From positions 458,767 to 522,766 of the forward strand of contig FREU01000001.1 in assembly GCA_900143615.1 (NCBI GenBank): a stretch of DNA of 64,000 nucleotides, in the 5' to 3' direction. Positions 4,019 to 28,775 of this stretch are shown piece after piece. The stretch's first letter is position 1. Every line of letters begins with the position of its first letter. Under the pieces are notes generated by a model, which saw nothing but the letters and a program-made list of their open reading frames with translations, was not told the DNA's origin and ran no database searches. This stretch comes from Rhodobacteraceae bacterium Alg231-30 (lineage in GTDB: Bacteria > Pseudomonadota > Alphaproteobacteria > Rhodobacterales > Rhodobacteraceae). A program made the position numbers and the translations under genes.

Positions 4019-4026
4019 TCACAATA

Positions 4027-4054: not shown

Positions 4055-4064
4055 AGTGCAAAAC

Positions 4065-4086
4065 AAATTCACACATATGAATATTT
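4065..4086. promoter_or_regulatory. Putative SqrR/SoxR-type operator upstream of soxB
   Basis: The stretch AAATTCACACATATGAATAT contains an exact ATTC-N8-GAAT palindrome, 16 nt before the soxB ATG and just after the soxA terminator. It aligns with the palindromes before soxS/soxV and soxX. The placement suggests an internal regulated promoter for soxBCDEF. Confidence 0.68.
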
Positions 4087-4101
4087 AAGGAATGGCAGAT
4101 T

Positions 4102-5799: not shown

Positions 5800-5820
5800 G
5801 GACAGAGGGAGGCATTGGAG

Positions 5821-8110: not shown

Positions 8111-8114
8111 GACC

Positions 8115-8825
8115 ATGTGGCGTGGTTTGTTTCCGCTCACTTTGCTTTTTGGTCTTATCTTAAGCCTGAGCTCGGTTGTGTGGGCTCAGGGAGGGGATTT
8201 AGACGCTGGCAAAAAGGTCTTTAAAAAGTGCCAGGGCTGTCATCAGTTGGGCGAAGGTGCCGAGCACCGCATTGGGCCGCATCTCAACGCATTGTTTGGT
8301 CGTAAAGCCGCTGGAGCAGCAGAGTTCAAATACTCCAAGAGTTTTAAACGTGCCGGTGCTGGTGGGTTGGTTTGGCATGCCGATACTCTTGATACCTTTC
8401 TGGAAAATCCGCGTGCGATGACCAGTGGCACGCGGATGAGTTTTGCTGGCATCAAGAAGGCGGAAGACCGCGCCAATCTAATCGCCTATTTGCGAGAGTT
8501 TTCTGACAATCCGGCGGACATTCCCGAGGCTGATCCAACCGCGCGGGGTACGGATCATGACCTTGACCCGGCGATTTTGGCGCTGCAAGGCGATCCGGAA
8601 TATGGCGCGTATCTGAGTGGCGAGTGCACAACCTGTCATCAAGCGGCAGGGGGCGATGCGGGAATTCCATCGATTGTTTTGTGGCCGGAGGATGACTTTG
8701 TCGTCGCAATGCATGCTTACAAAAATCAGAAACGAATTCATCCGGTGATGCAGATGATTGCCGGACGTTTGGGAGACGAGGAAATAGCGGCGCTGGCGGC
8801 TTATTTTGCGGTGCTGGAAGAGTGA
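8115..8825 (+). CDS. soxE: SoxE, diheme cytochrome c
   Basis: The ATG at 8115 begins MWRGLFPLTLLFG, a clear signal peptide; upstream in-frame starts would lie inside soxD. The 236-residue protein has two heme motifs, CQGCH in the first domain and CTTCH in the second. The first domain (FKKCQGCHQLGEG...FKYSKSF...MSFAGIKK) is a near-duplicate of the SoxD C-terminal domain. The second is shorter and c-type. In Paracoccus, SoxEF is a flavocytochrome c sulfide dehydrogenase-like pair that is not essential for the core Sox reaction. Confidence 0.92.
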   Translation: MWRGLFPLTLLFGLILSLSSVVWAQGGDLDAGKKVFKKCQGCHQLGEGAEHRIGPHLNALFGRKAAGAAEFKYSKSFKRAGAGGLVWHADTLDTFLENPRAMTSGTRMSFAGIKKAEDRANLIAYLREFSDNPADIPEADPTARGTDHDLDPAILALQGDPEYGAYLSGECTTCHQAAGGDAGIPSIVLWPEDDFVVAMHAYKNQKRIHPVMQMIAGRLGDEEIAALAAYFAVLEE

Positions 8826-8846
8826 TTTTACAGGGAGGAAACAGCT

Positions 8847-10106: not shown

Positions 10107-10113
10107 GTGTTTT

Positions 10114-10152
10114 GTCCTGCCCCCTTTGAGCGCGCGCAGAGGGGACGGGACG
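10114..10152 (+). terminator. GC-rich hairpin after soxF
   Basis: GTCCTGCCCCCTTT pairs with AGAGGGGACGGGAC across a GCGC-rich loop, with one mismatch and two G-T pairs. There is no T-run, so it could be a Rho-assisted end, a processing site or an mRNA-stabilising structure between soxF and the DUF302 gene. Confidence 0.45.
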
Positions 10153-10192
10153 CAAAGCGCCCATGGGCGCATAAAGGGAAGAGGAGACTCCC

Positions 10193-10621
10193 ATGAGAAA
10201 TCTATTGTTCACCCTGCCATTGTTTTGCGCGACGGCGGTATCGGCGGGGGATGCGATGACAACGGCTTATGATGGCAGCTTTGATGACGCGACATTTGCG
10301 GTGGAGAGCGCGATTGTGGATCGCGGGTTGGTCATCGACTATGTCAGCCATGTTGGCGAAATGTTGAACCGCACTGGAGGTGACGTCGGCAGTTCGACAG
10401 AGATTTTCAAAGCGGCAGATATTTTCTTGTTCTGCTCGGCGGTTGTGTCGCGTGAGGTCATGGAAGCTGATCCGATGAATATTGCGCATTGTCCCTATGG
10501 TGTTTTTGTGACCGAGACAGATGCAGGCGTTGCAATTGGACACCGTGACTACCCCGACGGGGCGATGCAAAAGGTCGAAGACCTCTTGGCAGATATTGTG
10601 GCTGAAGCTGCAGCGAACTGA
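10193..10621 (+). CDS. DUF302-family periplasmic protein
   Basis: This 142-residue protein has a signal peptide (MRNLLFTLPLFCATAVSAGD). The rest matches the DUF302 pattern: FDDATFAVESAIVDRGLVI near the N-terminus, then an IFLFCSA segment and the ending ADPMNIAHCPYGVFVTET. The biochemical function of the family is unknown, but members often accompany sulfur-oxidation genes. An AAGAGGAGACTCCC site precedes the ATG. It is probably the last gene of the sox unit, ending at a bidirectional terminator. Confidence 0.8.
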   Translation: MRNLLFTLPLFCATAVSAGDAMTTAYDGSFDDATFAVESAIVDRGLVIDYVSHVGEMLNRTGGDVGSSTEIFKAADIFLFCSAVVSREVMEADPMNIAHCPYGVFVTETDAGVAIGHRDYPDGAMQKVEDLLADIVAEAAAN

Positions 10622-10643
10622 TTGCCTTTTCAGGGCTCGTGAT

Positions 10644-10677
10644 AAACGCGGCGCTTTTTCAAAAGAGAGCCGCGTTT
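10644..10677. terminator. Bidirectional terminator between DUF302 gene and YeeE/YedE gene
   Basis: AAACGCGGC and GCCGCGTTT form a perfect 9-bp stem around a 16-nt loop, exactly filling the space between two convergent genes. T-rich flanks on both strands fit shared termination. Confidence 0.75.
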
Positions 10678-11721
10678 CTACGTCGGCTGTCTCTGAAGAA
10701 CTTGAGTGAGTAACGCGCCGATCCACATGGCGAACACAGCTAGCCACGCTGTGAGAGACAGGGCAGACCCGCCAGTTACACCAGAACCAACAGCACAGCC
10801 GCCTGCCAGCATGGCCCCAAAACCCATGAGAATTCCGCCGAGAAGATACCGCTCCATCGGGGTATCGGAGCCAAATCGCTGAATGCGCGCTTCGTTTTTT
10901 AGCAGCGCGATGATCAAGGCACCGATGAATACACCAGGCACCAAGCCCGTTCCAAAGTCGCGGATCAGAGATGGCGTATTGATCAGCGCCATCAGTGTAT
11001 CGGTGGAAGAACCTGTGAAGGTCACAGATTGAACCGAGACCACTTCAAAAGAATTCTGTGCCAAGACATAAGTGAGCCACCAACCCAGCCAGACGGCGAA
11101 GCCAACCATCAGAGAAGAGAACATTTTTGAGACGTTGAGGTGGCGGCCCTTCGCAAAAATGAGGGCTGCGAGGAGCGAGAGGGCTGCCAAGAGAACCACG
11201 GCTTCTCTTGGTAATGACAAGATGAAGGAGAGCTCGCGACCATGGCCGCCTTCGATGATCCATAAGGTAGAGAGTTTTTCACGCGCCGGTGAAAGTGCGC
11301 CACGTAGTGCGGCCTGTGCGGTCAGGGTCAAAATGAGGCCCGTCACCATGGCGCGAAGGTTTCCTGAGGCAGACAGGATCAGCAGGCGGCTGGCGCAGCC
11401 GCGGGCCAAGATCATGCCGACACCAAACATAAGTCCGCCGATAATTGCACCTGATAGGCTGCCAACGCTGGCAAGTTGGCGGCTTTCACTAAGGTCCAGC
11501 CATTCAAATAGAATAGAGAGTTGTGTGAGGAACAGCGCGGTGAAAAACACAATCAGCCAAATGGCCAGTTTTGGTCCCGCTTGACCCGAGGCAACTTCGG
11601 CAGTGGCGGCGCGCAAGCAAAAACGAGAGTGGTAGGCGCTTGCTCCAAAGATCAGTCCGACGATGGCGCCGATCATCATAAGCAAATTGTCTTCTGCGAA
11701 CCTATCGATAAGATGTTCCAC
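10678..11721 (-). CDS. YeeE/YedE-family sulfur-compound permease
   Basis: This 347-residue polytopic membrane protein has a GTG start preceded by AAGGATAA. Three conserved cysteines are visible in YHSRFCLRAAT (about residue 36), LARGCASRLL (about 109) and LAGGCAVGSG (near the C-terminus). They sit in the short repeats typical of the YeeE/TsuA thiosulfate uptake family. The last gene of a three-gene minus-strand unit, it faces the sox cluster. Likely substrates are thiosulfate or a related sulfane compound, by family and context. It begins 37 nt after the upstream MBL gene. Confidence 0.87.
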   Translation of the reverse strand: MEHLIDRFAEDNLLMMIGAIVGLIFGASAYHSRFCLRAATAEVASGQAGPKLAIWLIVFFTALFLTQLSILFEWLDLSESRQLASVGSLSGAIIGGLMFGVGMILARGCASRLLILSASGNLRAMVTGLILTLTAQAALRGALSPAREKLSTLWIIEGGHGRELSFILSLPREAVVLLAALSLLAALIFAKGRHLNVSKMFSSLMVGFAVWLGWWLTYVLAQNSFEVVSVQSVTFTGSSTDTLMALINTPSLIRDFGTGLVPGVFIGALIIALLKNEARIQRFGSDTPMERYLLGGILMGFGAMLAGGCAVGSGVTGGSALSLTAWLAVFAMWIGALLTQVLQRQPT

Positions 11722-11758
11722 GAGGGATTATCCTTTTGTGCCTCGCATGCAGAGGCGG

Positions 11759-12706
11759 CTATTCAAATTCCATTTGTTCATAGATTCGTCCGGCGTTTTT
11801 GGTCGCCAGTTCTTCGAAGGTATCTAAGTTTGCATAAGGCGATTGATCGACATAGTAGGCCTCAGCAAGATCTCCTCCTGCGTCCAGATGTGCGCCAACT
11901 TGCTCGCGCAAATACACTAGGTAGTCGCGGGTGTAGCGGCGCACTTGCGCGAGATTAGTGGGATGGCCGTGACCGGGGATGACATAGGTGGGAGCGAGCG
12001 GTTCAAACACAGTGTCCCAAGTCTCGATCCAGTCGGCCGTCATAGTGTCTTCAAAGATTGGCAACATCCGTTCGTGAAAGGCCATGTCGCCCGCAATCAC
12101 GAGGCTTTGCTCAGGTAGCCAGACGGATATGTCGCCTGCGCTATGGGCGGGGCCAAGGTTGCGCACCTCGATGTGATAGTCGCCCATGGTGATGTCATAT
12201 TGATCTTCAAAGGTTTCGGTGGGACCCGCAAGAGTTGTTCCTTCGGATTTGTCCTGATTGTAGCGCTGCATGCTGGACAGGATTTGCGGGCCGTATTCCT
12301 CAAATTCATGTGCGGCGTCCACATGGGCCAGAATGGGAACACCTTGTTCTGCCCAATAGGAATTACCGAGCATGGCATGACCTTGACCATTTTCATTGAT
12401 GATCATGCGTACCGGTTGGTCTGTGATTGCTCTAATTTCTTGATGCAATGCCTCGGCCAAGACGTACGCCGCGCCACCATTCACAACGATGACGCCGTCG
12501 CCGGTGACAATGAAGCTGAGGTTATTATTGTGGCCAGTGTTCTCGTATGTCGGTGGCGCAGTGGCCCCAATGGCGGACCAAACGTTTGGAATGACTTCGA
12601 CGGGTTTGGAGTACAGCGGCGACGCGGGGTATTGGTCTGCAATGTCCTCGCTGGCCAGAAGCGGGAAGGGCAGGCAGAAGGCCGTGAGGCAGAACAAAGC
12701 TCTCAT
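11759..12706 (-). CDS. SoxH-like metallo-beta-lactamase-fold protein with altered metal motif
   Basis: This 315-residue protein has a signal peptide (RALFCLTAFCLPFPLLA). The MBL fold is recognisable from FIVTGDGVIVVNGG, GPAHSAGDISVWLPEQSLVIAGD and VIPGHGHP. The motif that is normally HxHxDH reads NENGQG (in MIINENGQGHAMLGN), so the first three metal-ligand positions are not His/Asp, while the later His/Asp positions remain. SoxH proteins of sox clusters belong to this superfamily and are of unsettled function. It overlaps the preceding MBL gene by 4 nt (ATGA), implying coupling. It may be a single-metal or non-hydrolytic paralogue. Confidence 0.8.
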   Translation of the reverse strand: MRALFCLTAFCLPFPLLASEDIADQYPASPLYSKPVEVIPNVWSAIGATAPPTYENTGHNNNLSFIVTGDGVIVVNGGAAYVLAEALHQEIRAITDQPVRMIINENGQGHAMLGNSYWAEQGVPILAHVDAAHEFEEYGPQILSSMQRYNQDKSEGTTLAGPTETFEDQYDITMGDYHIEVRNLGPAHSAGDISVWLPEQSLVIAGDMAFHERMLPIFEDTMTADWIETWDTVFEPLAPTYVIPGHGHPTNLAQVRRYTRDYLVYLREQVGAHLDAGGDLAEAYYVDQSPYANLDTFEELATKNAGRIYEQMEFE

Positions 12707-13620
12707 GTGTTTTCTCCTAGAAACGTCAGGCCTTTGCCGGATCGTTCAACACGCCCCATTCCACCTTCGGGGAAGTGGAACCCAATGACCGTGAGATCGT
12801 CTTTGAGAACGCGATCAAACAGGGCGACGCGGGTTTGTGCGCCCAATTCAGGGTCTTGATCTGAGGTGCTGTGCCAAGCTGGATTATGAAATGCCAAATG
12901 GTGGTTAACAATCGCATCACCGATGATCAGTGCCGCTTGCGATCCGGAGCGCACCTCAAAGCTCATGTGTCCCGGGGTGTGACCCGGGGTGGCAACCGAG
13001 GCGATGCCTGAGAGGATTTCTTGGCCATCATCAAAGCGTTCAAATAGGTCTTCCATCGTCTTTAGGCGGCGGTGGGCACCGGCTGCAAAAGTAACGCGTT
13101 GCTCGCCGATTGTATTGATGGTTTCAGGGTTCCACCAATAGTCCCACTCGGCGCGCCCCATCAGATGGGTTGCATTGGCAAACATCGGGTCGTCAAAGTC
13201 GTCGAGCAATCCCCATAGATGATCAGGGTGGGCGTGTGTGAAAACTACATGAGTGACATCTTCTGGGGTAAGATTGAGCGCTGCGAGGTTGTCGATCAAG
13301 CGACCTGCGGTGGGCATGAAATCAGGACCCGCTCCGACGTCAAAAAGTACGACGTTCTGGCCGTCTTGGTAAACCGTTACATTGCAACTTGGTTCTAAGG
13401 TTGAGCCCGCAAGATCGTATTTTTCTGTGACAAACTCTACATCTTTTGATGGGAGGTTTGAGAATGCGAAGTTCTTGGGGAGAACCAGGTGGCCATCGCT
13501 GACAGTTTGCAATGTCCCGCGACCGATGGATAGGCTTGCGAGGGCGCGTGTCGCAAATGTGGTGCAAGCAGCTGCGCCGCCAACATGTCGCAAAAATCTG
13601 CGTCGAGATAAATTGCTCAA
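12703..13620 (-). CDS. Tat-exported metallo-beta-lactamase-fold hydrolase
   Basis: A TTG start at 13620 is chosen because GGGGAGGAAG sits 4 nt further upstream and the twin-arginine leader (SRRRFLRHVGGAAACTTFATRALA) begins at once. An upstream ATG (13650) falls inside the operator-like palindrome and lacks a ribosome site. The 305-residue product keeps the full zinc motif THAHPDH, plus TPGHTPGH, GDAIVNHH and a late GFHFP. It is likely a periplasmic zinc hydrolase acting on a sulfur compound, analogous to SoxG/SoxH; substrate unknown. First gene of the MBL-MBL-YeeE unit. Confidence 0.85.
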   Translation of the reverse strand: MSNLSRRRFLRHVGGAAACTTFATRALASLSIGRGTLQTVSDGHLVLPKNFAFSNLPSKDVEFVTEKYDLAGSTLEPSCNVTVYQDGQNVVLFDVGAGPDFMPTAGRLIDNLAALNLTPEDVTHVVFTHAHPDHLWGLLDDFDDPMFANATHLMGRAEWDYWWNPETINTIGEQRVTFAAGAHRRLKTMEDLFERFDDGQEILSGIASVATPGHTPGHMSFEVRSGSQAALIIGDAIVNHHLAFHNPAWHSTSDQDPELGAQTRVALFDRVLKDDLTVIGFHFPEGGMGRVERSGKGLTFLGENT

Positions 13621-14309
13621 TCTACTTCCTCCCCGAAGAAATCTATACATATTGTAATATGTGATTGTGTTGGTTTGGGGAAGGGTGATTTTTGTCGCGG
13701 TAGACGGTGTCTCGCTAAATGTGACAGGTGTTAGGTGGGCGGGCGGAATAGCAACCTTGTCTTGGATCCCCCAAATGGAATGCGCTTTTGCGGGGCAGAA
13801 ATTGCGATTCTCTACTGTAGACATCGCGCTTGTTTGCCGGGTTCATCTGGTAAAGTTGAGCTTAGAAACCTGATACGATGGGACTTGCGGTGATTTCCTT
13901 CTGGTTAATTGATGTAAATGATGCGTAATAAAAACTGATGTCAAATCCGCGGGAAACAAGAGCCCCGAACGAAGGTTAAGGAAGGGACATTTCACTTTCG
14001 CACGTTCAAGAGAAGCTTGTTTCTATAGTGTTGTAGGAATGTATTCTTGGTGTCGCGGGTGGCCGAGGACAATAGAAATTTCGAGTTCTTCTAGTCGATC
14101 AAATGCTGCACCTATGCAGAAAACAAATACCAAACCCCCGCATTGAATTTCACAAACTGTCCGGTGCGTTCTATCCTTGTCGCGCTGCATGAAGACATCA
14201 GCTCAAGTCTGTGAGAAAGCATCTCAAACTCGAATATGAGCGCTATGTTCAATTGATGGTTTCAAATGCGCAGCGCAGGGAAGAGGCATCGCCCAGATTG
14301 GAGACCCGC
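13621..14309. other. Gene-poor spacer between MBL gene and ligA
   Basis: This stretch of about 690 nt holds the palindrome at 13646-13668 near its left end and no convincing gene. Short open frames (e.g. 13661-13873 plus) lack ribosome sites and recognisable features. A GTG at 14211 could extend ligA upstream but lacks a ribosome site. The ligA promoter must lie here, but no clear element was identified. Confidence 0.6.
13646..13668. promoter_or_regulatory. Putative SqrR/SoxR-type operator for the MBL-MBL-YeeE unit
   Basis: ACATATTGTAATATGT (13647-13662) is a perfect palindrome with a 2-nt centre. On the minus strand the extended site begins ACAATCACATATTACAATAT. It matches the soxS/soxV site at 18 of 23 aligned positions by eye. 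It lies 26 nt before the TTG start, which supports coregulation of this unit with sox. Confidence 0.62.
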
Positions 14310-14702
14310 ATGACAGAAAAAGACTATGATGACATTCCAGGAACTTTTGTTTTTGACGCGGACCGCTCGCGCGAGGGTTATTGGCTCAACCAGTTCTGCA
14401 TCTCATTGAGTAAGGAAAAGAACCGTCAAGCGATGCGCGACGATCCTGAAGCTCATATGAGCGGGTTTGCGATGACAGAAGATCAAAAGCAGGCGGTGCG
14501 CGATCGCGCGTGGAACCGCTTGCTCTCGCTCGGGGGCAATATTTACTACACCTCCAAGCTCGCGGCCTTTGACGGTATCAATTTCCAGGAATTGGCTGCG
14601 ATGATGACGGGTGTGAGCCGTGAAGAATATCGGGACATGATGCTTAAAGGGGGGCGCTCGATTGAGGGCAACCGGTCCAAATCCGAATGGGAGAAGAAAT
14701 AG
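14310..14702 (+). CDS. ligA: Protocatechuate 4,5-dioxygenase alpha subunit
   Basis: The ATG at 14310 has GGAG 6 nt upstream and gives 130 residues, close to characterised LigA (about 139); a GTG 33 codons earlier is less likely. The sequence IPGTFVFDADRSREGYWLNQFC and the later MTGVSREEYRDMMLKGG segment match the small helical alpha subunit, which caps the LigB active site. ligB follows one base after the stop. The pair performs extradiol (meta) cleavage of protocatechuate. Confidence 0.93.
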   Translation: MTEKDYDDIPGTFVFDADRSREGYWLNQFCISLSKEKNRQAMRDDPEAHMSGFAMTEDQKQAVRDRAWNRLLSLGGNIYYTSKLAAFDGINFQELAAMMTGVSREEYRDMMLKGGRSIEGNRSKSEWEKK

Positions 14703-15554
<852 letters not shown>

Positions 15555-15606: not shown

Positions 15607-15689
15607 TCGTTTTGAGGCTGGCTGAAGGGTGGGGCGCGGCCTAAGCTGAGTTCGATAGATTGCTGGCCATCTTAGGAGAGGAAATTCGC

Positions 15690-16811
15690 ATGTATGTCGA
15701 ACCTTTTGGTGTCGAAATTTGGATGAACGAATGGGAAACCAAATGTGAGTTGAACCTTGCCGAGACTTGTGTCGAGAGCCTGACTATTGGCGAGTTACTG
15801 CATCTGGCAGGTAAGAACGACACTGATTTGTCCGAGCTATTATCTATGAAGATGACCTATGGTGCTATCGAAGGGTCCGATAGGCTGCGTCGTGCGATTG
15901 CTGAACTATACGAGCAGCTGACGCCACAGAACGTGATCGTCACCCACGGTACGATTGGCGCCAATATGTTGGTTCACAAGACCCTCGTGAGTGCGGGTGA
16001 TCATGTGGTCGCTGTGGTGCCGACATATCAGCAGCATTACTCCATTCCCTCAAGCATTGGCGCGGATGTGCAGAAGTTGAAGTTGCGCGAGGAGCAAGGT
16101 TTTCTCCCTGATCTGGACGCATTGCGCGCTATGGTCCGTCCAGACACGCAGTTGATTGCGCTTAATAATCCCAACAATCCGACAGGGGCCTTGATGGCCG
16201 GCGAGACATTGGAGAAGATTGCCGAAATTGCGCGATCTGTAGGGGCTTGGGTCCTATGTGATGAGGTGTATCGTGGCACGGATCAAGAGGGCGATGGCAT
16301 GACTGCGTCGATTTGTGATGTGTATGAAAAGGGCATCAGCACGGCAGGGATGTCCAAAGCATATTCTCTGGCGGGGTTGCGGTTGGGGTGGATTGCCGGG
16401 CCGCATGACGTGATTGAGGCCGTTTCAGTGCATCGTGATTATGACACCATATCAGTGGGCATGATTGATGATCATTTTGCGGCTTTGGCACTTGAGAACC
16501 GAAGTAAAGTTTTAGCGCGCAGTCACGCAATCACACGTGGAAACCTGGCTATTCTAGACGCATGGATGGCCACGCAGCCACGTTTGTCATGGGTGAAGCC
16601 GAGATCAGGGACAACTGCCCTAGTCAAATATGATCTGGATATGTCTTCTCGCGACTTCTGTATTGCTTTGCTGCGCGAAACAGGTGTGATGTTCACTCCG
16701 GGATCTGCCTTGGACATGGAAGGTTATGTGCGCGTCGGGTACGCAAATACGCCTTCGGTCTTAGTTGAAGGATTAGCACGTGTGGGAGAGTTTTTGTTAA
16801 GGCAGGCGTGA
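15690..16811 (+). CDS. PLP-dependent class I/II aminotransferase
   Basis: The ATG at 15690, preceded by AGGAGAGG, begins MYVEPFGVEIW and gives 373 residues. Fold-type I features are clear: NNPNNPTGALM, the VLCDEVYRG aspartate/tyrosine strand, the PLP lysine in GMSKAYSLAGLRLGW, and the late VRVGYAN. The sequence style resembles the small subfamily that includes capreomycidine-synthase-like enzymes, but the substrate cannot be assigned. It follows ligAB on the same strand but after a terminator, so it may be a separate unit. Confidence 0.82.
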   Translation: MYVEPFGVEIWMNEWETKCELNLAETCVESLTIGELLHLAGKNDTDLSELLSMKMTYGAIEGSDRLRRAIAELYEQLTPQNVIVTHGTIGANMLVHKTLVSAGDHVVAVVPTYQQHYSIPSSIGADVQKLKLREEQGFLPDLDALRAMVRPDTQLIALNNPNNPTGALMAGETLEKIAEIARSVGAWVLCDEVYRGTDQEGDGMTASICDVYEKGISTAGMSKAYSLAGLRLGWIAGPHDVIEAVSVHRDYDTISVGMIDDHFAALALENRSKVLARSHAITRGNLAILDAWMATQPRLSWVKPRSGTTALVKYDLDMSSRDFCIALLRETGVMFTPGSALDMEGYVRVGYANTPSVLVEGLARVGEFLLRQA

Positions 16812-17219: not shown

Positions 17220-18089
17220 TTACCAGTCAAAATTCCTAAGAAGCTCTGCTAGTTCTCGGGTGAGTTGTGGGAAACGAGACTGTTCACGGGTTAGCAGTGA
17301 CACAGAACGACGGATGGCCAGTCCTTTGATTTCTCGAAATGTCAGTTGATCGGGCATAATTCGGACCACAGCACGGGGCAAGATCGTGACCCATTTTTCA
17401 GTGCGTACCATACTGATCAAAGAGAGGGTGTTGTGCACGGTGACCTTTGCGTCTTCAAGTAGAGTGACGTGCTCCGGGATGTCAATTTGGCGGCTGAGAT
17501 TGTTTTGCACAAAGCCTGCCGCCATGACCTGAGAAAGGGTGGGCTGTTGCGGTTGGGTTGCTAAGGGATGATTGGGCGCGCAAACGAGGCCGAAAGCGTC
17601 TTCAAACAAAGCTTCTTGTTGGATGCCATTTAGGATGGGTTGGCCTGAAGCAATACCCAAATCGGCCTGACCGCGTATCAAGGCATCAATGACTTTGTCC
17701 GTGTCTGTGTCGCGAAGCTCGACCTTGATGCCGGGATGCCGGGTGGTGAGGGTTTCAATTGCAGAAGGAAATACGAGGTCGGCTACCGAAGGCACGGAGG
17801 CGATGCGCAGCAGACCTTGTGGCGCATTTGCGGCGGACTCGATGGCATCTACGGTGTCTTCAAATTGGCGAAGCTGCTCTTGGGCTAGCGCGAAAATCTC
17901 CTCCCCTAATGGTGTGAGGCGGTTTTTACGTTCACCTTCAAAAAGGCGCGCACCGAGGTGCTCTTCGAGGTGTTTGAGCGTCATAGAGACGGCCGATTGT
18001 GTGCGCCCCAATTGTAGGGCAGCGTCTGCAAGATTTCCTGTCTGCGCAACAGTGGCAAAGCAACGTAGCATTGCAATCTTGATCGCCAT
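17220..18089 (-). CDS. LysR-family transcriptional regulator
   Basis: This 289-residue protein has an N-terminal winged helix (LRCFATVAQTGNLADAALQLGRTQSAVSMTLKHLEEHLGARLFEG) and a periplasmic-binding-like effector domain. It is divergent from the aldehyde dehydrogenase gene with only 96 nt between starts, the usual arrangement for a LysR regulator controlling its neighbour. The spacer has an imperfect inverted pair GATGTT/AACATC (about 18131-18173) that could be part of its site. The effector is unknown; an amine or its degradation product is a reasonable guess from context. Confidence 0.9.
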   Translation of the reverse strand: MAIKIAMLRCFATVAQTGNLADAALQLGRTQSAVSMTLKHLEEHLGARLFEGERKNRLTPLGEEIFALAQEQLRQFEDTVDAIESAANAPQGLLRIASVPSVADLVFPSAIETLTTRHPGIKVELRDTDTDKVIDALIRGQADLGIASGQPILNGIQQEALFEDAFGLVCAPNHPLATQPQQPTLSQVMAAGFVQNNLSRQIDIPEHVTLLEDAKVTVHNTLSLISMVRTEKWVTILPRAVVRIMPDQLTFREIKGLAIRRSVSLLTREQSRFPQLTRELAELLRNFDW

Positions 18090-18185
18090 TTCAGTTTTCC
18101 TGAAGTTTGTTTGATTTATTTAAGTTTGACTGATGTTGGTTTCGAAGTCCACGGTGTTTCAAACATCTGAATTGGGACGTACGTC

Positions 18186-19637
18186 ATGGCTGATACACAA
18201 CTGAACCTCATTGCCGGTAATTGGGTTGCAGGTGAAAGCGAGATTGAAAACCGCAATCCTTCGGATTTGAGCGACCTTGTCGGCATGTTCGCGCAAGCCA
18301 CTGGTGACCAACTTGAGGCGACGCTCGATCAGGCGCGTCAGGCGCAGATCGAATGGGCGGCCTATGGTTTGGAGAGAAAACAGGCTGTGTTGAATGCGAT
18401 CGGTACCGAGATGATGGCGCGGGCTGAGGAATTGGGGCGTTTGCTTTGCCGCGAGGAAGGCAAACCACTCGCCGAAGGGAAGGGCGAGGTGTATCGTGCA
18501 GGTCAGTTTTTCACTTACTACGCCGCGGAATGCCTGCGGCAGTTAGGTGAGAATGCCGATAGTGTACGCGATGGCGTCGAGATCGATGTGCGCCGCGAGC
18601 CGGTAGGTATTGTCGCAGTGATTTCACCTTGGAACTTCCCAACCGCCACCGCCTCTTGGAAAATTGCCCCCGCGCTGTGTTATGGCAATGCGGTGGTGTG
18701 GAAACCCGCCAATATTACACCTGCATCGGCTGTGGCTTTGGCTGAGATCATTGAGCGTCAAGACATTCCCAAAGGGTTGTTTTCGCTGGTCATGGGATCA
18801 GGACGCAGCATCGGGCAGCGCTTGGTGGAAAGCCCCAAAGTAGACGCAATTACTTTCACAGGCTCAGTGCCTGTGGGTAAAGGAATTGCGACAGCAGCCA
18901 TTCAAAACCTGACCAAGGTGCAGATGGAGATGGGGTCGAAAAACGCGCTGGCAGTGATGGACGATGCGGATTTGGATTTGGCGGCGACGCTTGCGCTGGG
19001 CGGGGCATTTGGCGGCACAGGGCAAAAATGCACGGCCTCTTCGCGGTTGGTTGTGCATGCTGCGGTGCATGACGCTTTTGTAGAGAAAGTCATTGCTGGC
19101 GCGAAGGCTATGAAAGTGGGCCATGCGCTGGAAGAGGGTACTCAGATGGGGCCTGTGGTCAGCGCACAGCAACTGCAGGAAAACCTCGACTATGTGGCGC
19201 TGGGCGTTTCGGAGGGGGCTGAGTTGGCCTGTGGTGGGGCGCGTTTGGAGATGCCGCACGACGGCTTCTATATGTCGCCTGGTGTGTTTTTGAGCACTAC
19301 AAATGACATGCGCATTAACCGCGAAGAGATGTTTGCTCCGCTCACAAGTGTGATCAAAGTGCATAGTTACGATGAAGCGCTGGCGACGGTGAATGACACG
19401 AATTTTGGCCTGACCTCGGGCATTGTGACGCAAAGCCTGGCGCGGGCCACACATTTCCGGCGCAATGCGCGCACGGGTGTTGTGACGGTGAACCTGCCCA
19501 CGGCTGGAACAGACTATCATGTACCTTTCGGCGGGCGCGGCGACAGTTCGTATGGGCCGCGTGAACAGGGCAAGTCGGCGTCAGAATTCTACACCACAGT
19601 AAAGACAGCTTATATCAGCGCAGGGGCGCCAGCCTGA
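18186..19637 (+). CDS. NAD(P)-dependent aldehyde dehydrogenase (ketoglutarate-semialdehyde dehydrogenase-like)
   Basis: This 483-residue enzyme has the ALDH landmarks: SPWNFPTATASWKIAPAL, the cofactor loop ITFTGSVPVGKGI, the general-base glutamate in MEMGSKNALAV, and the catalytic cysteine in GTGQKCTASSR. The last block resembles alpha-ketoglutaric semialdehyde dehydrogenases, though substrate is uncertain. The stop overlaps the next ATG (TGATG), so the dipeptidase-like protein is probably made from the same transcript. The divergent LysR gene is the likely regulator. Confidence 0.9.
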   Translation: MADTQLNLIAGNWVAGESEIENRNPSDLSDLVGMFAQATGDQLEATLDQARQAQIEWAAYGLERKQAVLNAIGTEMMARAEELGRLLCREEGKPLAEGKGEVYRAGQFFTYYAAECLRQLGENADSVRDGVEIDVRREPVGIVAVISPWNFPTATASWKIAPALCYGNAVVWKPANITPASAVALAEIIERQDIPKGLFSLVMGSGRSIGQRLVESPKVDAITFTGSVPVGKGIATAAIQNLTKVQMEMGSKNALAVMDDADLDLAATLALGGAFGGTGQKCTASSRLVVHAAVHDAFVEKVIAGAKAMKVGHALEEGTQMGPVVSAQQLQENLDYVALGVSEGAELACGGARLEMPHDGFYMSPGVFLSTTNDMRINREEMFAPLTSVIKVHSYDEALATVNDTNFGLTSGIVTQSLARATHFRRNARTGVVTVNLPTAGTDYHVPFGGRGDSSYGPREQGKSASEFYTTVKTAYISAGAPA

Positions 19638-20617
19638 TGCGGATAGACTGTCTGCAATACGCCAATTGGTCTGAAAAGATTTTTCGCCAGATGCGCGCAG
19701 GCGGTGTGGACGCGGTGCATGTCACCATCGCCTATCACGAGACGTTTCGCGAAACGGTAGCTAACTTTGAGCAATGGAACCGCTGGTTTGAGCAATACCC
19801 CGATCTGATCATGAAGGGGCAGTGGGCGAGCGATATTGACGTGGCGCGCAAGACAGGACGTACAGCAATCTTCTTTGGGTTCCAGAACCCAAGCCCGATG
19901 GAGGACGATATCGGGTTAGTGGAAATTCTGCATACATTAGGCGCGCGGTTTATGCAGCTGACCTATAATAACCAATCGCTTTTGGCGACGGGCTGTTATG
20001 AAGCCGAGGATAGTGGCGTGACCCGTATGGGGCGGCAGGTTATCAAAGAGATGAACCGCGTTGGTTTGGTTGTGGACATGAGCCATTCGGCGGATCGCTC
20101 GACTATTGAGGCGGCGGACATTTCACAGAGGCCCATCGCGATTACTCATGCGAACCCGCATGTCTGGTCACCAGCGCTGCGTAACAAAAAGGATGATGTT
20201 ATCCGCGCTGTGACGGCAAATGGCGGCATGTTCGGTTTTTCGCTGTACCCGCATCATCTGAAGGGGAAATCGGACTGCTCTGTAACAGACTTTTGCGAGA
20301 TGATCGCGCGTACGGCGGATACTTTTGGGGTGCAGAATTTGGGGATCGGTACGGATTTGTGCCAAGATCAGCCAGACAGCATTGTGGAGTGGATGCGCGT
20401 GGGACGCTGGACCAAGGAGATTGACTACGGCGAAGGCTCGGCCAGCAATGCCGGCTTTCCGCCAATGCCCCATTGGTTTCAAGACAATCGCGATTTTGGC
20501 AATATCGAGAGCGGCCTGAAGGCCGTCGGTATGAGTGAGGCCGAAGTGGCTGCAATTATGGGTAGCAATTGGTACCGCTTCTTTAAAGACAATTTTGGGG
20601 CAGGGGCAGTGGCATGA
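19637..20617 (+). CDS. Peptidase M19 (membrane dipeptidase)-family protein, HxD motif absent
   Basis: The 326-residue cytoplasmic protein has the renal-dipeptidase barrel order: FFGFQNPSP, LTYNNQS, VVDMSHSADRS, ITHANPHVW and IGTDL. The N-terminal metal motif of active M19 enzymes (DGHND type) reads IDCLQYANW, so the first zinc His and Asp are missing. A comparable M19 subfamily occurs beside dimethylglycine/betaine genes in Pseudomonas (PA5396 type, from memory). Its start overlaps the ALDH stop and its end overlaps the next start, so it belongs to a tightly coupled operon. Confidence 0.82.
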   Translation: MRIDCLQYANWSEKIFRQMRAGGVDAVHVTIAYHETFRETVANFEQWNRWFEQYPDLIMKGQWASDIDVARKTGRTAIFFGFQNPSPMEDDIGLVEILHTLGARFMQLTYNNQSLLATGCYEAEDSGVTRMGRQVIKEMNRVGLVVDMSHSADRSTIEAADISQRPIAITHANPHVWSPALRNKKDDVIRAVTANGGMFGFSLYPHHLKGKSDCSVTDFCEMIARTADTFGVQNLGIGTDLCQDQPDSIVEWMRVGRWTKEIDYGEGSASNAGFPPMPHWFQDNRDFGNIESGLKAVGMSEAEVAAIMGSNWYRFFKDNFGAGAVA

Positions 20618-22302
20618 TTGAGCCAACGCTGACCCAAGTGGCCCGTCGTGATCCGGCGGTTGTCATGCGCCTTAAGCGGTTAGGGTCTTTGCATCAGTGT
20701 CGGCTTAGTTTCATGCGTATTTTGACACGACGCATGGCCGAACAGAATTGGGAATTCACCCGTCCTGTGTTTGATATTGATGACCTTGGCGTGGGGCGCG
20801 CCGTTTATACTGCCAAAGGGCCTGAGCGTAGCTATTCGTTGATTGCTTTTGCACATGATTTGCCGGCTGATCAACGATCAGATCGCGTGATCGCCGAGGC
20901 ATGGGATGCGACTTTTACTTTGTTTGATGGGATTCCGAGCGAGGCAGATCTGGATCGGTTGTCCCAAAATGTGCCGTTACAGGAAGCAGGGCGTGTGCAA
21001 GAAACAGAACTGTCGCTGTCGCGTGCGAACCGTTCTGTTCGACTGTGGGCGCATGTGGTTGATGCTTTGGCTGCAGGGAAACAACCTGACCCGGGCATGA
21101 TTGATCAAGTCGGTTATTTGATGCGCACAACTGCCGTTTACGGATCTGGTAAATTTGGCGCTGCAGATCGGGAGACGTTGGCGGATCGCGATGAGCTGCA
21201 GGTTCCCTTTCAGGCGGAAATGTTGTCGGTATTTCTAACGCGGACTTTTGTGCGCGATTTGGTTCAACATATGGCGAACGTTAGAGGTGGGGAGGCGACG
21301 GCAACCTTGAGGCCTGCGCTTGCGCGGCGTCTGGGAATTGGCAACTCCACTGGATTGGGGATGGCGCCGTTTATCATTAATCATCCGGTTTTGTTTAATA
21401 ATTGGATTATGGTGCGCGAAGAAGCCATCGCGCGGGTACGTTCGCTCACACAAGCTTCAGCCAAGGAAATTGCTCACTTTAAAGACGTTCTGGACCGCGC
21501 GATTGTCTCAGTCGCTAAGTGGCGATCCGAGCATCCGGTTCAGATCAAAAAGCTTGAGACCCTGCAACGTGATATTTTTGCGCTACAACAATACATCGCC
21601 GACCAAGAACTTTCGGGCGACTTGCCGTGGGATGCGTTGATGGTCTGGGCTGAAGATGTGTTGAGTGAAGAGGGGCAAGAGTTCGTTGCTTCTCTGATAC
21701 TAGAGCCGTATGGCGCGTTGGTGGATGGATTAGCCAGCTGTATGGCTGACCATTACGAAAAAAGCTTCCGCATCGATGGCGCGATGACGGTCGGCGCATT
21801 GAGAGCGCGCATTGAGCAAAACTTTGGCTGGGCTCTTGCTGTGGATTGGCAAAGGCGCGAGAATTGCGCCCGGGCGTGGTATGTTTCTGAGGAAAAGCTA
21901 GAACCGCGACTGGGTGAACGCTTTGACGAGCCTATCGAAGAGTATGAACAACCTTTGGCTCCTGCGCGCGATGCGGCAATGGCACATGCGGCTTTGAAAG
22001 ATTGGGGGAGGGATGGGCCTGTGGCTGAATTTCTACTCAAGCACCCAGAGCATCGCCACACCGTGCGGCGTGCCCAGCTGAGTGAAATTGCGCCGTATTC
22101 AGAGATTCATGACAACACCATAAGCTCGGAGGTGTTACCGATTGATATGTTGCGCGCCAAGCTGTCGTTTTTTGGAGCAACGCGGTTTGATCCGCGTTCC
22201 GATAGATGGGTGCGAATTTGTATGTATGCCAACGCGCCATATCCAGAGGAGTTAACGGAGCAAAACGCGGATCTCTGGGTCTATCCAAAGGATTTGTCGT
22301 GA
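20614..22302 (+). CDS. Uncharacterised 562-residue protein
   Basis: I do not recognise this family. The protein is soluble-looking, with no signal peptide or membrane segments, and mostly alpha-helical in composition. It begins MIEPTLTQVARRDP. An Arg-rich block (MRLKRLGSLHQCRLSFMRILTRR, about 16-38) is followed by a mixed domain (PVFDIDDLGVGRAVYTAKG). A helical middle and a C-terminal part rich in acidic and Trp residues end in WVYPKDLS. It overlaps the M19-like gene by 4 nt (ATGA) and the DUF3726 gene by 4 nt (GTGA), so all should be produced together. A role in the same amine-related pathway is inferred. Confidence 0.8.
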   Translation: MIEPTLTQVARRDPAVVMRLKRLGSLHQCRLSFMRILTRRMAEQNWEFTRPVFDIDDLGVGRAVYTAKGPERSYSLIAFAHDLPADQRSDRVIAEAWDATFTLFDGIPSEADLDRLSQNVPLQEAGRVQETELSLSRANRSVRLWAHVVDALAAGKQPDPGMIDQVGYLMRTTAVYGSGKFGAADRETLADRDELQVPFQAEMLSVFLTRTFVRDLVQHMANVRGGEATATLRPALARRLGIGNSTGLGMAPFIINHPVLFNNWIMVREEAIARVRSLTQASAKEIAHFKDVLDRAIVSVAKWRSEHPVQIKKLETLQRDIFALQQYIADQELSGDLPWDALMVWAEDVLSEEGQEFVASLILEPYGALVDGLASCMADHYEKSFRIDGAMTVGALRARIEQNFGWALAVDWQRRENCARAWYVSEEKLEPRLGERFDEPIEEYEQPLAPARDAAMAHAALKDWGRDGPVAEFLLKHPEHRHTVRRAQLSEIAPYSEIHDNTISSEVLPIDMLRAKLSFFGATRFDPRSDRWVRICMYANAPYPEELTEQNADLWVYPKDLS

Positions 22303-22931
22303 GTTGGTCTTTGAACGAAGTTGAGAGTTTGGCCAAGAGAGCGACGCGCGGCGTGGGGTATCCTTGGGGAGTGGCTGAAGAAGCAGCTATGGCGGTACGC
22401 TGGCTGAGTGCACGAGATGTCGATGGCGCAGCAGCTTTGGTGCAGATGTTGACACAGGTCGATGGGAAGGCGTTTGGGTATCGTTCGCCGGAGGCCGGTT
22501 GTGAAATTTGGCGGGCCAGTTCCGGCACACTTTGCCCGCTGCTGGCTGGCGCTGCTCTGTCAGATTTCGCGTCCTATTTTCCTGAGGGCGGCATCGAGAC
22601 AGAGGCGATGTGGCAACCGATTTTGATGGTTCCCTTTGCCGCGGCGCTTGCTCGCAATAATGGAAAGCCAATCGCTGTTCTCTGGGGTGAAACTACGGCG
22701 ATCACGGACGGTGATGTTCTGAGCTTGCAAGGCCCAATGGAAGCAGTCGCTGAAGCTGTTCATATTGCTCCAGCCGCATTGGAAACCGCCACGGCAAGAA
22801 AAACAAATCGCGCAAAAACCGGGCCTCAGGATTGGGTGGCTCTCATGCAATTGGCCCACAGAACATATGCGCCTGCTTCTGAGGAGTCGCGGATGAGCGG
22901 CGCAGGGGCGGGATTGTGCGATAATGATTGA
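22299..22931 (+). CDS. DUF3726-family protein
   Basis: The start is GTG at 22299, overlapping the previous stop (GTGA). The true N-terminus is MSWSLNEVESLAKRATRGVGYPWGVAEEA, which is where DUF3726 similarity begins; longer upstream frames are not real. The 210-residue product has no signal or membrane segment. The family has no assigned activity. It is the final member of a four-gene coupled set (ALDH, M19-like, 562-residue protein, DUF3726), and 214 nt later the BCCT gene follows on the same strand. Confidence 0.78.
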   Translation: MSWSLNEVESLAKRATRGVGYPWGVAEEAAMAVRWLSARDVDGAAALVQMLTQVDGKAFGYRSPEAGCEIWRASSGTLCPLLAGAALSDFASYFPEGGIETEAMWQPILMVPFAAALARNNGKPIAVLWGETTAITDGDVLSLQGPMEAVAEAVHIAPAALETATARKTNRAKTGPQDWVALMQLAHRTYAPASEESRMSGAGAGLCDND

Positions 22932-23144
22932 GCAGATGCTGCTCACATAGAGTTTGAAGCGAAAGCTTCTAATGAAACAAACGCGCGAATGGGACACAAA
23001 GTCGGCTTGCCGGTCTTTGCGCCCCCCAAATGGCGGAACAGCCATTTTGAGGTGAGGATGAACCTTGCCCATGAACTAGGGAGTGAAACTGCGGTTTGCC
23101 TAGGAGGGGCGGATCGCTTGTTTCAAGCGAAGGGAGGAAAGTGA

Positions 23145-24977
23145 ATGTCAATCAAACAGCCGTTTACGGATCTGGAAATCAAGACGTCCTCAAAGGGCTT
23201 CTATGAAGGGCACAGCGTAGAAATCGCTCTGCTAAGCAAAGCAATTATGGTGGGGCTGGTTCTCTGGGCCCTCGTGTGGCCTGCGAATGCGAATGGTGTT
23301 TTAGGCAGTCTCAACTGGAAAATCTTGGAAGGGTTTAACGCGTTTTATATTGTCATCGTGGGCCTCTTCTTTTTCTTCCTATTTGTCGTGGCGTTGCTGC
23401 CGCAAACGGGAAAGCGTATTATGGGACGACCAGGCGAGGGGACCGAATTTTCGAATTTTTCGTGGTTCTCAATGATGTTTGGCGCAGGCCTAGGCGTGGG
23501 GTTAATGGTCTTTGCCACCGCAGAGCCGCTGGGGCTATGGGGCTCCAATCCAGTGGTTTTGTCGCAAGATGTGGCACCAAACAGTGAAGAGGCGCTCACC
23601 TCGGCTTACCGCTATACCTTTGCACACTATGGTTTTCACGCTTGGGCTATCTATGTGGTGACAGGGCTGTCGCTGGCCTACTACGCCTATACACGTGACA
23701 TGCCACTGACAATCCGTACTGCGCTCACGCCGCTGTTTGGCAAGATGCTGAACGGTTTTTTGGGCCATGTTGTCGATGTCCTGGGCGTGGTTGCTACTAT
23801 CCTAGGTGTGTCTGTGACAATTGGCTTTGGTGTTTCGCAGTTTATCGATGGGATGTATGCGATTACCGGCATGGAGTGGATGATGGACATGAGTGGTGAC
23901 GCACCTGCTCCAGGCACTGTGGGTCTGATTGCCGGACTTTTGGTGATCATGGGACTGTCGATTATTTCGGCCGTGTCGGGCGTGGGGCGAGGCGTGAAAT
24001 ACCTCTCCAACCTCAATCTTGTGCTATCGCTTGTCTTGCTATTTACCTTTGTGATCTTTGGCTCATTCTTATTTGCGATGACCACCTATGCTTCGGCATT
24101 GGTTGACTATGTTCTGAACTTCTTGTCGCTCAGCTTTGGCGCCTATGGACCGCAATCCGCAGCAGCGTTTGATGCAGCACTTCCTGCTGAAGCCGCGCCT
24201 TTTGCAGATGCATTGCGCGGTGGTGCAACTAACGCTTGGGGGTCATTTGACGGGTTCCGGAGCGGGCTTGAGGGGGATGCTGCGGCTTTGTCTGAAAGCA
24301 CGTTGCAAGCAGCATACGCGGCCGGTGAACCGGGGCGTCAATTTGGTTGGCAAGCAGGGTGGACCACCTTCTACTGGGCGTGGTGGATCGCATTTTCGCC
24401 ATTTGTCGGTCTGTTCCTAGCGCGTATTTCGCGCGGGCGTTCAGTGCGGGAATTCATCGTTGGATGTGTCTTTGCACCCGCGCTTGTCTGTTTTGCGTGG
24501 ATGACCATCCTTGGAGGCACAGCCATTGATCTGGAACTGACAGGCGGGGCCGAAGGCGCAATTATCGGCGCGTCCAATACAGCCAAACTGTTTATCACCT
24601 TAAGCGAGATGATTTCAGGTGGGTTTCTGTCTGCCATTACCATCATGTGCGTGGTGCTGATTATGACCTTCCTCGTAACGTCGGCAGACTCGGGTATTTT
24701 GGTGATGAACACGATTATGTCCGGTGGTGATCAGGAAGTCGGGAACAAGCACAAGGTCGTCTGGGGTGTTATCCTGACCGCCGTGATTGGTACCTTGCTG
24801 ATTGCGGGTGCTTCTAGTGGCACAAACCCGATGGACGCGTTGAAAAATGCGATGATTATCGGGGCGTTGCCCTTTACGATGGTGATGGGCTTTATGTGTA
24901 TCGCTCTGGCCAAAGCGCTATACCGTGATGGCATACGTGAGAAAGCGGGCACGCTGACGCCACATGTTGCTGAGTAA
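23145..24977 (+). CDS. BCCT-family betaine/carnitine/choline transporter
   Basis: This is a 610-residue protein with about 12 membrane segments. The BCCT signature is clear in WTTFYWAWWIAFSPFVGLFLARISRGRSVREF. GAGLGVGLMVFATAEPLGLW and LVTSADSGILVMN are also typical of the family. The ATG has GGGAGGAAAGTGA upstream. These carriers import quaternary ammonium compounds (glycine betaine, choline, carnitine) or DMSP. The neighbouring MttB homologue and M19/ALDH genes suggest catabolic use of the imported compound. A strong bidirectional terminator follows. Confidence 0.94.
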   Translation: MSIKQPFTDLEIKTSSKGFYEGHSVEIALLSKAIMVGLVLWALVWPANANGVLGSLNWKILEGFNAFYIVIVGLFFFFLFVVALLPQTGKRIMGRPGEGTEFSNFSWFSMMFGAGLGVGLMVFATAEPLGLWGSNPVVLSQDVAPNSEEALTSAYRYTFAHYGFHAWAIYVVTGLSLAYYAYTRDMPLTIRTALTPLFGKMLNGFLGHVVDVLGVVATILGVSVTIGFGVSQFIDGMYAITGMEWMMDMSGDAPAPGTVGLIAGLLVIMGLSIISAVSGVGRGVKYLSNLNLVLSLVLLFTFVIFGSFLFAMTTYASALVDYVLNFLSLSFGAYGPQSAAAFDAALPAEAAPFADALRGGATNAWGSFDGFRSGLEGDAAALSESTLQAAYAAGEPGRQFGWQAGWTTFYWAWWIAFSPFVGLFLARISRGRSVREFIVGCVFAPALVCFAWMTILGGTAIDLELTGGAEGAIIGASNTAKLFITLSEMISGGFLSAITIMCVVLIMTFLVTSADSGILVMNTIMSGGDQEVGNKHKVVWGVILTAVIGTLLIAGASSGTNPMDALKNAMIIGALPFTMVMGFMCIALAKALYRDGIREKAGTLTPHVAE

Positions 24978-27227: not shown

Positions 27228-28775
27228 ATGGCGCTTGATACTCGCCGTCGCGCTGGTGGGCGTTCTGCGCGTCGTGCTGCGCGCACTGCGCATGATTTTA
27301 CGATGTTGCGTGGATTAAACAACGTGTTGCCGTATTGCGAGGTCATGGATGGCGCACAGGTAGAGCGGATAGATGCGGCGTCCATGGATATTCTTGAAAA
27401 TGTTGGGGTCGTGTTTCGTGATGAGATCGCGCTTGAGGATTGGCGTCGCGTGGGGGCTAAAGTTGATGGCGAGCGCGTATATCTGGACCGGGGTTTAGTC
27501 CGAGAATTAATCGCGACGATCCCGGAAACCTTTACTTATCACGCTCGAAACCCTGCTAAGAACGTGGCCTTGGGGGGGCGGCAATCGATCTTTGTGCCGA
27601 TGACTGGTGCGCCGTATTTACGTGATCTGGAGGATGTGCGTCGCAATCCGACACTGGATGATTTGGCGATGTTCCATAAGCTTGCTCATATGTTGCCTGC
27701 AATGCATTCAAGCGCACATCACATCGTCGAGCCATATGACCACCCGATCAGCCAACGCCATTTGCAGATTACTTATTCGTCAATGAAGCACTCTGACAAA
27801 ATTTTCATGGGTATGACCACCAGCCCAAGGAATGCTGAGGACGTGCTGGATATGTGCGCAATCCTGTTTGGCGAAGACTTCTTAGAGAAACATCCCGTCA
27901 CCACAGGGAATTGCAATGGTAACAGCCCTTTGGTTTGGGATGAAACCATGTTGGGTGCGATGCGGGCGTTTTGTAGACGTAATCAACCGGTGCTGTGCTC
28001 GCCATTTGTATTAGGCGGGGCAAACACGCCTGCTAGTGTGGCCGCTTCGGTTGCGCAGCTAAATGCCGAAGCGCTGAGCGCGCTGGCCTATACGCAAGTG
28101 ATCCGTAAAGGATGTCCAGCGATCTATGGGCATTATCTGTCCACTGTCAGCATGAAGTCGGGTGCGCCGATGGCAGGGACACCTGAAATAAGCTTGATGA
28201 ATTTCATGATTGGCCAGATGGCGCGGTATTATGGCGTCCCATGGCGCACTTCTAACACGTTGGGCGGAGCAAAGACGTTTGATGCGCAGGCCGGCTATGA
28301 GAGCGCGACGACATTGAGTTCGGTGATGCATGCCGGCGCGAATTACATCTGGCATAGCGCTGGATGGAATGAGGCGGGTATGCATTGTTCCGTGGCCAAA
28401 TTCATTGTCGACGCTGAGCAATGTGCAATGGCGTATCGTATGGCCGAAGGTCCCAAATGGCATGATTTTGAAGAGGCGTTGGCCGCTGTGAGTGATGTCG
28501 GTCCCGGAGGGCATTATCTGGGACATGACCACACGCAAGAAAACTTCCAAAGTGCGTTTTTCATGCCGGCGATGTTTGACAACAATTCGATTGAGCAATG
28601 GGCCGCAGAAGGTTCTGTCGAGATAACAGAGAGAGCTTTAAATCACGCTCGGGCGTTGCTGCAAGCCTATGAGGAGCCTGTGCTGGACGCCTCCAAAAAT
28701 GACGCTTTGCTGGACTATATCGCCCGCCGTGAAAGGGAAATTCCGGCGGCAGATGAACTGAACCAGAGTTATTAG
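27228..28775 (+). CDS. MttB-family trimethylamine methyltransferase homologue (non-pyrrolysine)
   Basis: The ATG at 27228 has AAGGAGGACGAA upstream and gives 515 residues, the usual family length; longer starts lack such a site. The opening RRAGGRSARRAAR and internal CNGNSPLVWDETMLGAM, GAPMAGTPE and LGGAKTFDAQAGYES are family-like. The frame has no in-frame TAG, so there is no pyrrolysine. Non-Pyl members include glycine betaine:corrinoid methyltransferase MtgB. Role: probably demethylation of a quaternary amine. No cognate corrinoid protein or reductive activase is seen nearby, which leaves the acceptor unknown. Confidence 0.86.
   Translation: MALDTRRRAGGRSARRAARTAHDFTMLRGLNNVLPYCEVMDGAQVERIDAASMDILENVGVVFRDEIALEDWRRVGAKVDGERVYLDRGLVRELIATIPETFTYHARNPAKNVALGGRQSIFVPMTGAPYLRDLEDVRRNPTLDDLAMFHKLAHMLPAMHSSAHHIVEPYDHPISQRHLQITYSSMKHSDKIFMGMTTSPRNAEDVLDMCAILFGEDFLEKHPVTTGNCNGNSPLVWDETMLGAMRAFCRRNQPVLCSPFVLGGANTPASVAASVAQLNAEALSALAYTQVIRKGCPAIYGHYLSTVSMKSGAPMAGTPEISLMNFMIGQMARYYGVPWRTSNTLGGAKTFDAQAGYESATTLSSVMHAGANYIWHSAGWNEAGMHCSVAKFIVDAEQCAMAYRMAEGPKWHDFEEALAAVSDVGPGGHYLGHDHTQENFQSAFFMPAMFDNNSIEQWAAEGSVEITERALNHARALLQAYEEPVLDASKNDALLDYIARREREIPAADELNQSY

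What the first reader, a model, noticed from the sequence alone, without database searches (positions are those of the whole stretch)
18186..24977. Uncharacterised four-gene translational unit (ALDH, M19-like, 562-residue protein, DUF3726) beside a BCCT transporter
Seen: TGATG, ATGA and GTGA overlaps join all four genes behind a divergent LysR regulator, and a BCCT carrier follows. Two members (562 residues and DUF3726) have no known function, and the M19 member lacks its zinc HxD. Known: M19-type proteins accompany dimethylglycine catabolism genes in Pseudomonas (from memory) and BCCT carriers import betaines. Inference: an undescribed catabolic route for a quaternary amine or related zwitterion, with the unknown pair as enzyme or chaperone.
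Basis: partly seen in the sequence, partly recalled or inferred. Interest (0 to 1): 0.7.

Follow-up and report, generated by a model that had tools for sequence, protein, structure and literature searches.

The report
Probable homarine-degradation operon of marine bacteria
This gene cluster probably lets a marine bacterium take up a methylated ring compound such as homarine, common in plankton, and turn it into glutamate; the pathway was probably published recently, but two of its proteins have no characterised role that I could find.

Summary
In detail: ALDH, M19-like, 562-aa (U562) and DUF3726 genes overlap by TGATG, ATGA and GTGA behind a divergent LysR gene; a BCCT gene follows after 213 nt.

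U562, DUF3726 and the M19-like protein form one inherited module. Across 198 genomes of the family, U562 and this M19 subtype occur in 91 each and share 89. Fuller operons in relatives add a reductase nearest delta1-piperideine-2-carboxylate reductase, a betaine-type transporter and, in some, an N-methylglutamate dehydrogenase (Mgd) operon beside an AraC-type gene. The window's genome holds such an Mgd operon although no GmaS-type gene passes the family cut-off. [quoted passage not shown] Most likely this is that kind of operon (0.65), so the route is probably not undescribed.

The parts
17220..18089 (-). LysR-type regulator, divergent from the operon
   Evidence: PF03466/PF00126; divergent LysR genes 47-62% identical in the nearest relatives, 36-43% or in the other orientation in others
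18090..18104 (.). LysR-type box TTCA-N7-TGAA between the divergent genes
   Evidence: conserved in the alignment of the window with 23 relatives; the T-N11-A rule for LysR boxes is recalled
18125..18133 (+). conserved TTTGACTGA motif upstream of the ALDH gene
   Evidence: same alignment
18186..19637 (+). aldehyde dehydrogenase; nearest NCBIfam models 2,5-dioxovalerate / alpha-ketoglutaric semialdehyde dehydrogenase, below cut-offs
19637..20617 (+). M19-like (2i5g-type) amidohydrolase relative without HxD
   Evidence: PF01244 239.5 bits; best PDB sequence match 2i5g E 2e-55; residue conservation
20614..22302 (+). U562, 562-residue protein without a known family; confident predicted model, no clear solved counterpart
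22299..22931 (+). DUF3726 protein (210 aa, GTG start), predicted shortened Ldh_2 fold without conserved His
23145..24977 (+). BCCT transporter, 71-87% identical to the BCCT copies of the same type near U562 in 17 of 80 loci

Best explanation
The unit is a LysR-controlled operon for catabolism of homarine (N-methylpicolinate), or a very close N-methyl cyclic imino acid. BCCT imports the zwitterion. The core module U562 + DUF3726 + M19-like protein opens the ring and frees the nitrogen; the ALDH oxidises a five-carbon semialdehyde; the product N-methylglutamate is oxidised to glutamate by N-methylglutamate dehydrogenase (Mgd, elsewhere in this genome). Most likely order (inferred, about 0.3): partial ring reduction by a DpkA-like reductase (in the operon of relatives, missing here), oxygen-dependent cleavage of the C5-C6 bond by U562 with DUF3726, ALDH acting on N-formyl-N-methylglutamate semialdehyde, and removal of the formyl group by the M19-like protein. 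Shown: gene content, module conservation, linkage, folds as predicted models. Inferred: substrate and each reaction.
For: Operons in relatives: LysR, ALDH, M19, U562, DUF3726, Ldh with BCCT or a glycine-betaine-type ABC carrier, and in some sarcosine-oxidase-type beta/delta/alpha/gamma genes with an AraC-type gene between. The Ldh gene's best solved relative is delta1-piperideine-2-carboxylate reductase (1wtj, E 7e-56); its relatives of at least 53% identity occur in 33 of 198 family genomes, 33 of 33 carrying U562 and within 8 kb of it. The alpha-subunit clade next to these operons looks like Mgd: 39 of its 59 genomes hold GmaS (17 within 20 kb), against 21 of the other 139 genomes with GmaS. 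The window's genome has this clade at 77% with an AraC-type neighbour and no GmaS above cut-off (that GmaS belongs to model TIGR03105 is recalled). Of genomes without GmaS, U562 is in 16 of 20 with Mgd and 37 of 118 without. tmaR (AraC type) adjoins mgdABCD in R. pomeroyi, and Mgd is reported to act in homarine catabolism (PMC13390433, passages). R. pomeroyi draws down homarine fast (PMC12817926, passages). Formyl-THF deformylase and, in one, FolD follow two clusters.
Against: No direct link to homarine was readable: the gene list of the 2026 paper is not held, and I did not establish whether R. pomeroyi carries this operon. 37 of 118 family genomes with neither Mgd nor GmaS still carry U562, and 4 of 59 Mgd genomes have neither GmaS nor U562. 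Mgd lies within 20 kb of U562 in only 4 of 40 genomes with both, and SoxA-type genes in 5 of 80 loci. The 43-51% identical U562 copies show no association with Mgd (10 of 26 against 49 of 172, p 0.36). The window lacks the DpkA-like gene; the best homologue in its genome is 40% identical. Co-occurrence tests are not corrected for ancestry.
Confidence: 0.65

Rival explanations
1. The operon degrades another N-methylated cyclic zwitterion (N-methylproline or proline betaine, N-methylpipecolate, trigonelline, or a hydroxylated relative) with the same logic.
For: Betaine-type carriers; DpkA-type reductases act on cyclic imino acids (family knowledge); 27-30% identical copies in Sinorhizobium, Bosea and Mesorhizobium sit with other catabolic genes, so substrates vary.
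Against: Association with Mgd in GmaS-less genomes asks for a product that is N-methylglutamate, which proline-type substrates do not obviously give; trigonelline is known to release methylamine by other enzymes (recalled).
Confidence: 0.2
2. One reading: undescribed quaternary-amine route, U562/DUF3726 as enzyme plus chaperone or assembly factor.
For: Strict U562-DUF3726 pairing with 4-nt overlap (73 of 80); conserved DUF3726 tail predicted with low confidence, as might be expected for a partner-binding segment.
Against: DUF3726 is predicted to have a dehydrogenase-type fold; no Rieske or other demethylase family among the operon's Pfam hits.
Confidence: 0.08
3. Ordinary dipeptide or amino-acid amide use with a normal M19 dipeptidase.
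For: PF01244 membership.
Against: HxD lost, and Gln in place of the bridging Glu in 82 of 82 aligned; BCCT/ABC betaine carriers and Mgd context.
Confidence: 0.03

Closest known systems
Homarine catabolism in environmental bacteria (Ferrer-Gonzalez et al. 2026, Nat Microbiol 11:1531; only title and one citing passage seen; the operon name homABCDER is recalled, not from a call)
   Same: Mgd involvement; if recollection is right, one regulator plus five genes, as LysR + ALDH, M19, U562, DUF3726, Ldh
   Different: Gene list not verified; this window lacks the Ldh gene
Ldh_2 dehydrogenases (malate/lactate, ureidoglycolate, YiaK, DpkA)
   Different: 210 against about 340 aa; no conserved His; profile searches do not place it there
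M19 amidohydrolase 2i5g (molecule listed as 'amidohydrolase'; recalled as Pseudomonas aeruginosa PA5396 of the dimethylglycine region)
   Same: full-length match, E 2e-55, and no HxD in the aligned N-terminus
   Different: genomic setting and presumably substrate
Trigonelline ring cleavage (tgn genes, Acinetobacter; recalled)
   Same: N-methylpyridinium ring opening followed by an aldehyde dehydrogenase and hydrolases
   Different: tgn uses a flavin monooxygenase; no such family was found in the operon

Membership tests
Homarine catabolic operon | same gene families as the published operon | not testable with these tools
   paper not held
Homarine catabolic operon | feeds N-methylglutamate dehydrogenase | tested here: inconclusive
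   Mgd-type operon in own genome without GmaS above cut-off; linkage in 4 of 40 genomes with both; association; but 37 of 118 genomes with neither Mgd nor GmaS carry U562
Homarine catabolic operon | growth on, or induction by, homarine | not testable with these tools
   needs culture
Ldh_2 superfamily (DUF3726) | overall fold | tested here: met
Ldh_2 superfamily (DUF3726) | conserved catalytic His (SHG motif) | tested here: not met
   no His among invariant or nearly invariant columns of 67 sequences; the Ldh neighbour keeps S47, H48, G49; catalytic role recalled
Ldh_2 superfamily (DUF3726) | sequence profile match | tested here: not met
   no PDB sequence up to E 5, no Ldh_2 hit in 67 members up to E 5; of three distant counterparts one hits Ldh_2 weakly, E 0.025, and their joint profile does not match the Ldh profile
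Peptidase M19 | family profile | tested here: met
   PF01244 239.5 bits, cut-off 26
Peptidase M19 | HxD and bridging Glu metal ligands | tested here: not met
   alignment; Gln83 in 82 of 82
Peptidase M19 | two later His ligands and the Asp | tested here: met
   H150, H171, D240 in 82 of 82; ligand roles recalled from renal dipeptidase
BCCT transporters | PF02028 profile | tested here: met
   472.2 bits, cut-off 27
Known fold for U562 | match to a solved structure | tested here: inconclusive

The most novel reading that the evidence does not exclude
U562 with DUF3726 is a new class of ring-cleaving enzyme: a protein of a fold not yet solved, working with a shortened Ldh_2-type protein that has lost its His, which opens N-methylpyridinium-type rings without a Rieske centre or a recognisable flavin domain; the M19-like partner is a metal-depleted hydrolase. 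The same module with other neighbours in rhizobia would then act on a different heterocycle.
Probability: 0.35. Interest if true: 0.8.

Novelty: new member of a known kind. Interest (0 to 1): 0.5.

Why it matters
Homarine is among the diatom osmolytes that R. pomeroyi consumes within hours (PMC12817926, passages), yet in 2022 no confirmed transporter for it was listed in that genome (PMC9723723, passage). U562 was found in 91 of 198 sampled genomes of the window's family and 53 of 385 of its class, including some of 1.2-1.4 Mb. Two uncharacterised families in it now have a shared neighbourhood, predicted structures and a testable reaction, and a BCCT carrier becomes a candidate homarine importer.

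Tried and rejected

Rows dropped before counts: the footprint used 23 of 80 loci (ALDH present, LysR on the minus strand and at least 45% identical, spacer 40-260 nt); structure alignments used the window plus 73 of 80 U562 and plus 66 of 75 DUF3726 proteins; alpha subunits were split at 1300 bits, one partial copy (G032) was put into the Mgd-like set by hand, and G083 (1229.8 bits, 60% identity, GmaS within 20 kb) stayed outside it though it may be Mgd; one search compared only the first 51 of the lower-scoring alpha-subunit places; one search did not list all of its matches; the M19 comparison held the window, 78 of the 80 loci and three distant copies.

Full report
WHAT IS THERE. The window lies on contig C10 of a 4.54-Mb genome held under the handle G000. 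Protein families: LysR; Aldedh; Peptidase_M19; none for the 562-residue protein (U562); DUF3726; BCCT. The GC of the six genes (0.53-0.57) is close to that of the window (0.537). The BCCT gene is separated by 213 nt.

MODULE. In these 80, U562 and DUF3726 are present in 80 each and an M19 gene in 79 (L107, the missing one, is a contig that begins 171 nt upstream of the match; L139's is 36% alike on the other strand); ALDH-like in 57 (four of them only 31-40% alike), LysR in 52, Ldh-type in 35, BCCT in 17 and 12 (two types), SoxA-type alpha subunit in 5. The U562 stop overlaps a DUF3726-frame start by 4 nt in 73 of 80. Among 198 genomes of the window's family, U562 occurs in 91 and the M19 subtype in 91; 89 are shared. 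In several of the 15 loci that I looked through gene by gene, no ALDH, LysR or carrier of the operon's kind stands near the triad. So the triad is the unit of inheritance and the other genes are additions. Distant copies (27-30% identity) on Sinorhizobium, Bosea and Mesorhizobium plasmids again pair U562 with a protein of 236-255 aa, two of the three with an M19 gene, and lie with ABC transporters and, variously, an aminotransferase, aldehyde dehydrogenases and RidA. All three small proteins carry near the C-terminus a P-x-S-x2-SR-x2-AG motif like the AP-x4-SR-x2-GAG of DUF3726, and profile comparison aligns the N-termini in register (P 0.0003, probability 41%).

REGULATION. In the window and 23 relatives with a divergent LysR gene, the intergenic region keeps TTCA-N7-TGAA (18090-18104) and TTTGACTGA (18125-18133). 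The first has the form of a LysR box.

PATHWAY. In annotated plasmids the genes are LysR, ALDH, M19, U562, DUF3726 and Ldh with a BCCT (Aliiroseovarius after Ldh; Ruegeria sp. TM1040 a different BCCT between M19 and U562) or a glycine-betaine-type ABC carrier (Shinella, Aminobacter, Roseateles); Phaeobacter inhibens has LysR, ALDH, M19, U562 and DUF3726 without Ldh or carrier there. Four of the nine annotated regions have sarcosine-oxidase-type subunits beside the operon with an AraC/GlxA-type gene between; two further regions carried no annotation. In R. pomeroyi the AraC-type tmaR adjoins mgdABCD, N-methylglutamate dehydrogenase (PMC13390433, passages). That the cluster-linked alpha subunits are Mgd is supported by their own linkage: of 59 genomes with this clade 39 have GmaS and 17 have it within 20 kb, against one (G083) within 20 kb among the 51 lower-scoring places compared. 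The window's genome has such an operon on contig C8 with an AraC-type gene, but no GmaS over the cut-off (best 249.9 of 469.6 bits). N-methylglutamate would then come from something other than methylamine through GmaS. Over 198 genomes, 55 of 59 with Mgd have GmaS or U562, against 58 of 139 without Mgd; among GmaS-less genomes U562 is in 16 of 20 with Mgd and 37 of 118 without. The 43-51% identical U562 copies alone show no association. These counts are not corrected for ancestry, and the 37 show that Mgd is not obligatory. [quoted passage not shown] From memory its operon is called homABCDER, one regulator and five genes, which would fit LysR, ALDH, M19, U562, DUF3726 and Ldh; that is recollection, not a result.

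MECHANISM (inferred). The nitrogen of homarine bonds to C2 and C6; N-methylglutamate keeps C2-C5, so C6 must leave as a one-carbon unit and C5 must become a carboxylate. A route that uses every gene: reduction of the ring to an enamine (Ldh type), oxygen-dependent cleavage C5=C6 (U562 with DUF3726), oxidation of the C5 aldehyde (the ALDH, whose two nearest models are C5 semialdehyde dehydrogenases, below cut-off), deformylation (M19-like), then Mgd. The absence of the Ldh gene in this window is the weak point; either another reductase (40% homologue on C10) serves or the order differs.

VERDICT. Observation confirmed; interpretation partly supported; most probably a member of a published pathway, with open biochemistry in U562, DUF3726 and the M19-like protein.

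Noticed in passing
window 27228-28772 (+): MTTB-family (PF06253, 707 bits) methyltransferase gene open without an internal stop, after the BCCT gene; TIGR02369 below cut-off (275.5 of 525 bits).
   Followed up: no
window 15660-16811 (+): PLP enzyme over the cut-off of NF005593 and below that (345 of 415 bits) of the guanitoxin (S)-gamma-hydroxy-L-arginine cyclodehydratase model; only a similarity.
   Followed up: no
window 14211-15554 (+): Class III extradiol dioxygenase subunits (protocatechuate 4,5-dioxygenase type).
   Followed up: no
window 3164-13824: Sulfur-oxidation-type genes (SoxA/TsdA cytochrome, molybdopterin oxidoreductase, flavocytochrome c) with two metallo-beta-lactamase-fold proteins and a sulphur transporter.
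   Followed up: partly
L060:8941-19671 (S. meliloti plasmid): Distant version of the module (IclR, U562-like, small DUF3726-like protein, M19, ABC transporter, aminotransferase, semialdehyde dehydrogenase, RidA), likely for another substrate.
   Followed up: partly
L118, L121, L124, L128, L139: U562 copies 59-61% identical in metagenome bins named Acidimicrobiales: gene transfer or mis-binning.
   Followed up: no
L173 (genome of the window's genus): Keeps an Ldh gene (78%) beside DUF3726, but its U562 is only 62% identical, less than copies in other genera, and no LysR, ALDH or BCCT of the operon was found in the region; its copy may not be inherited in common with the window's.
   Followed up: partly
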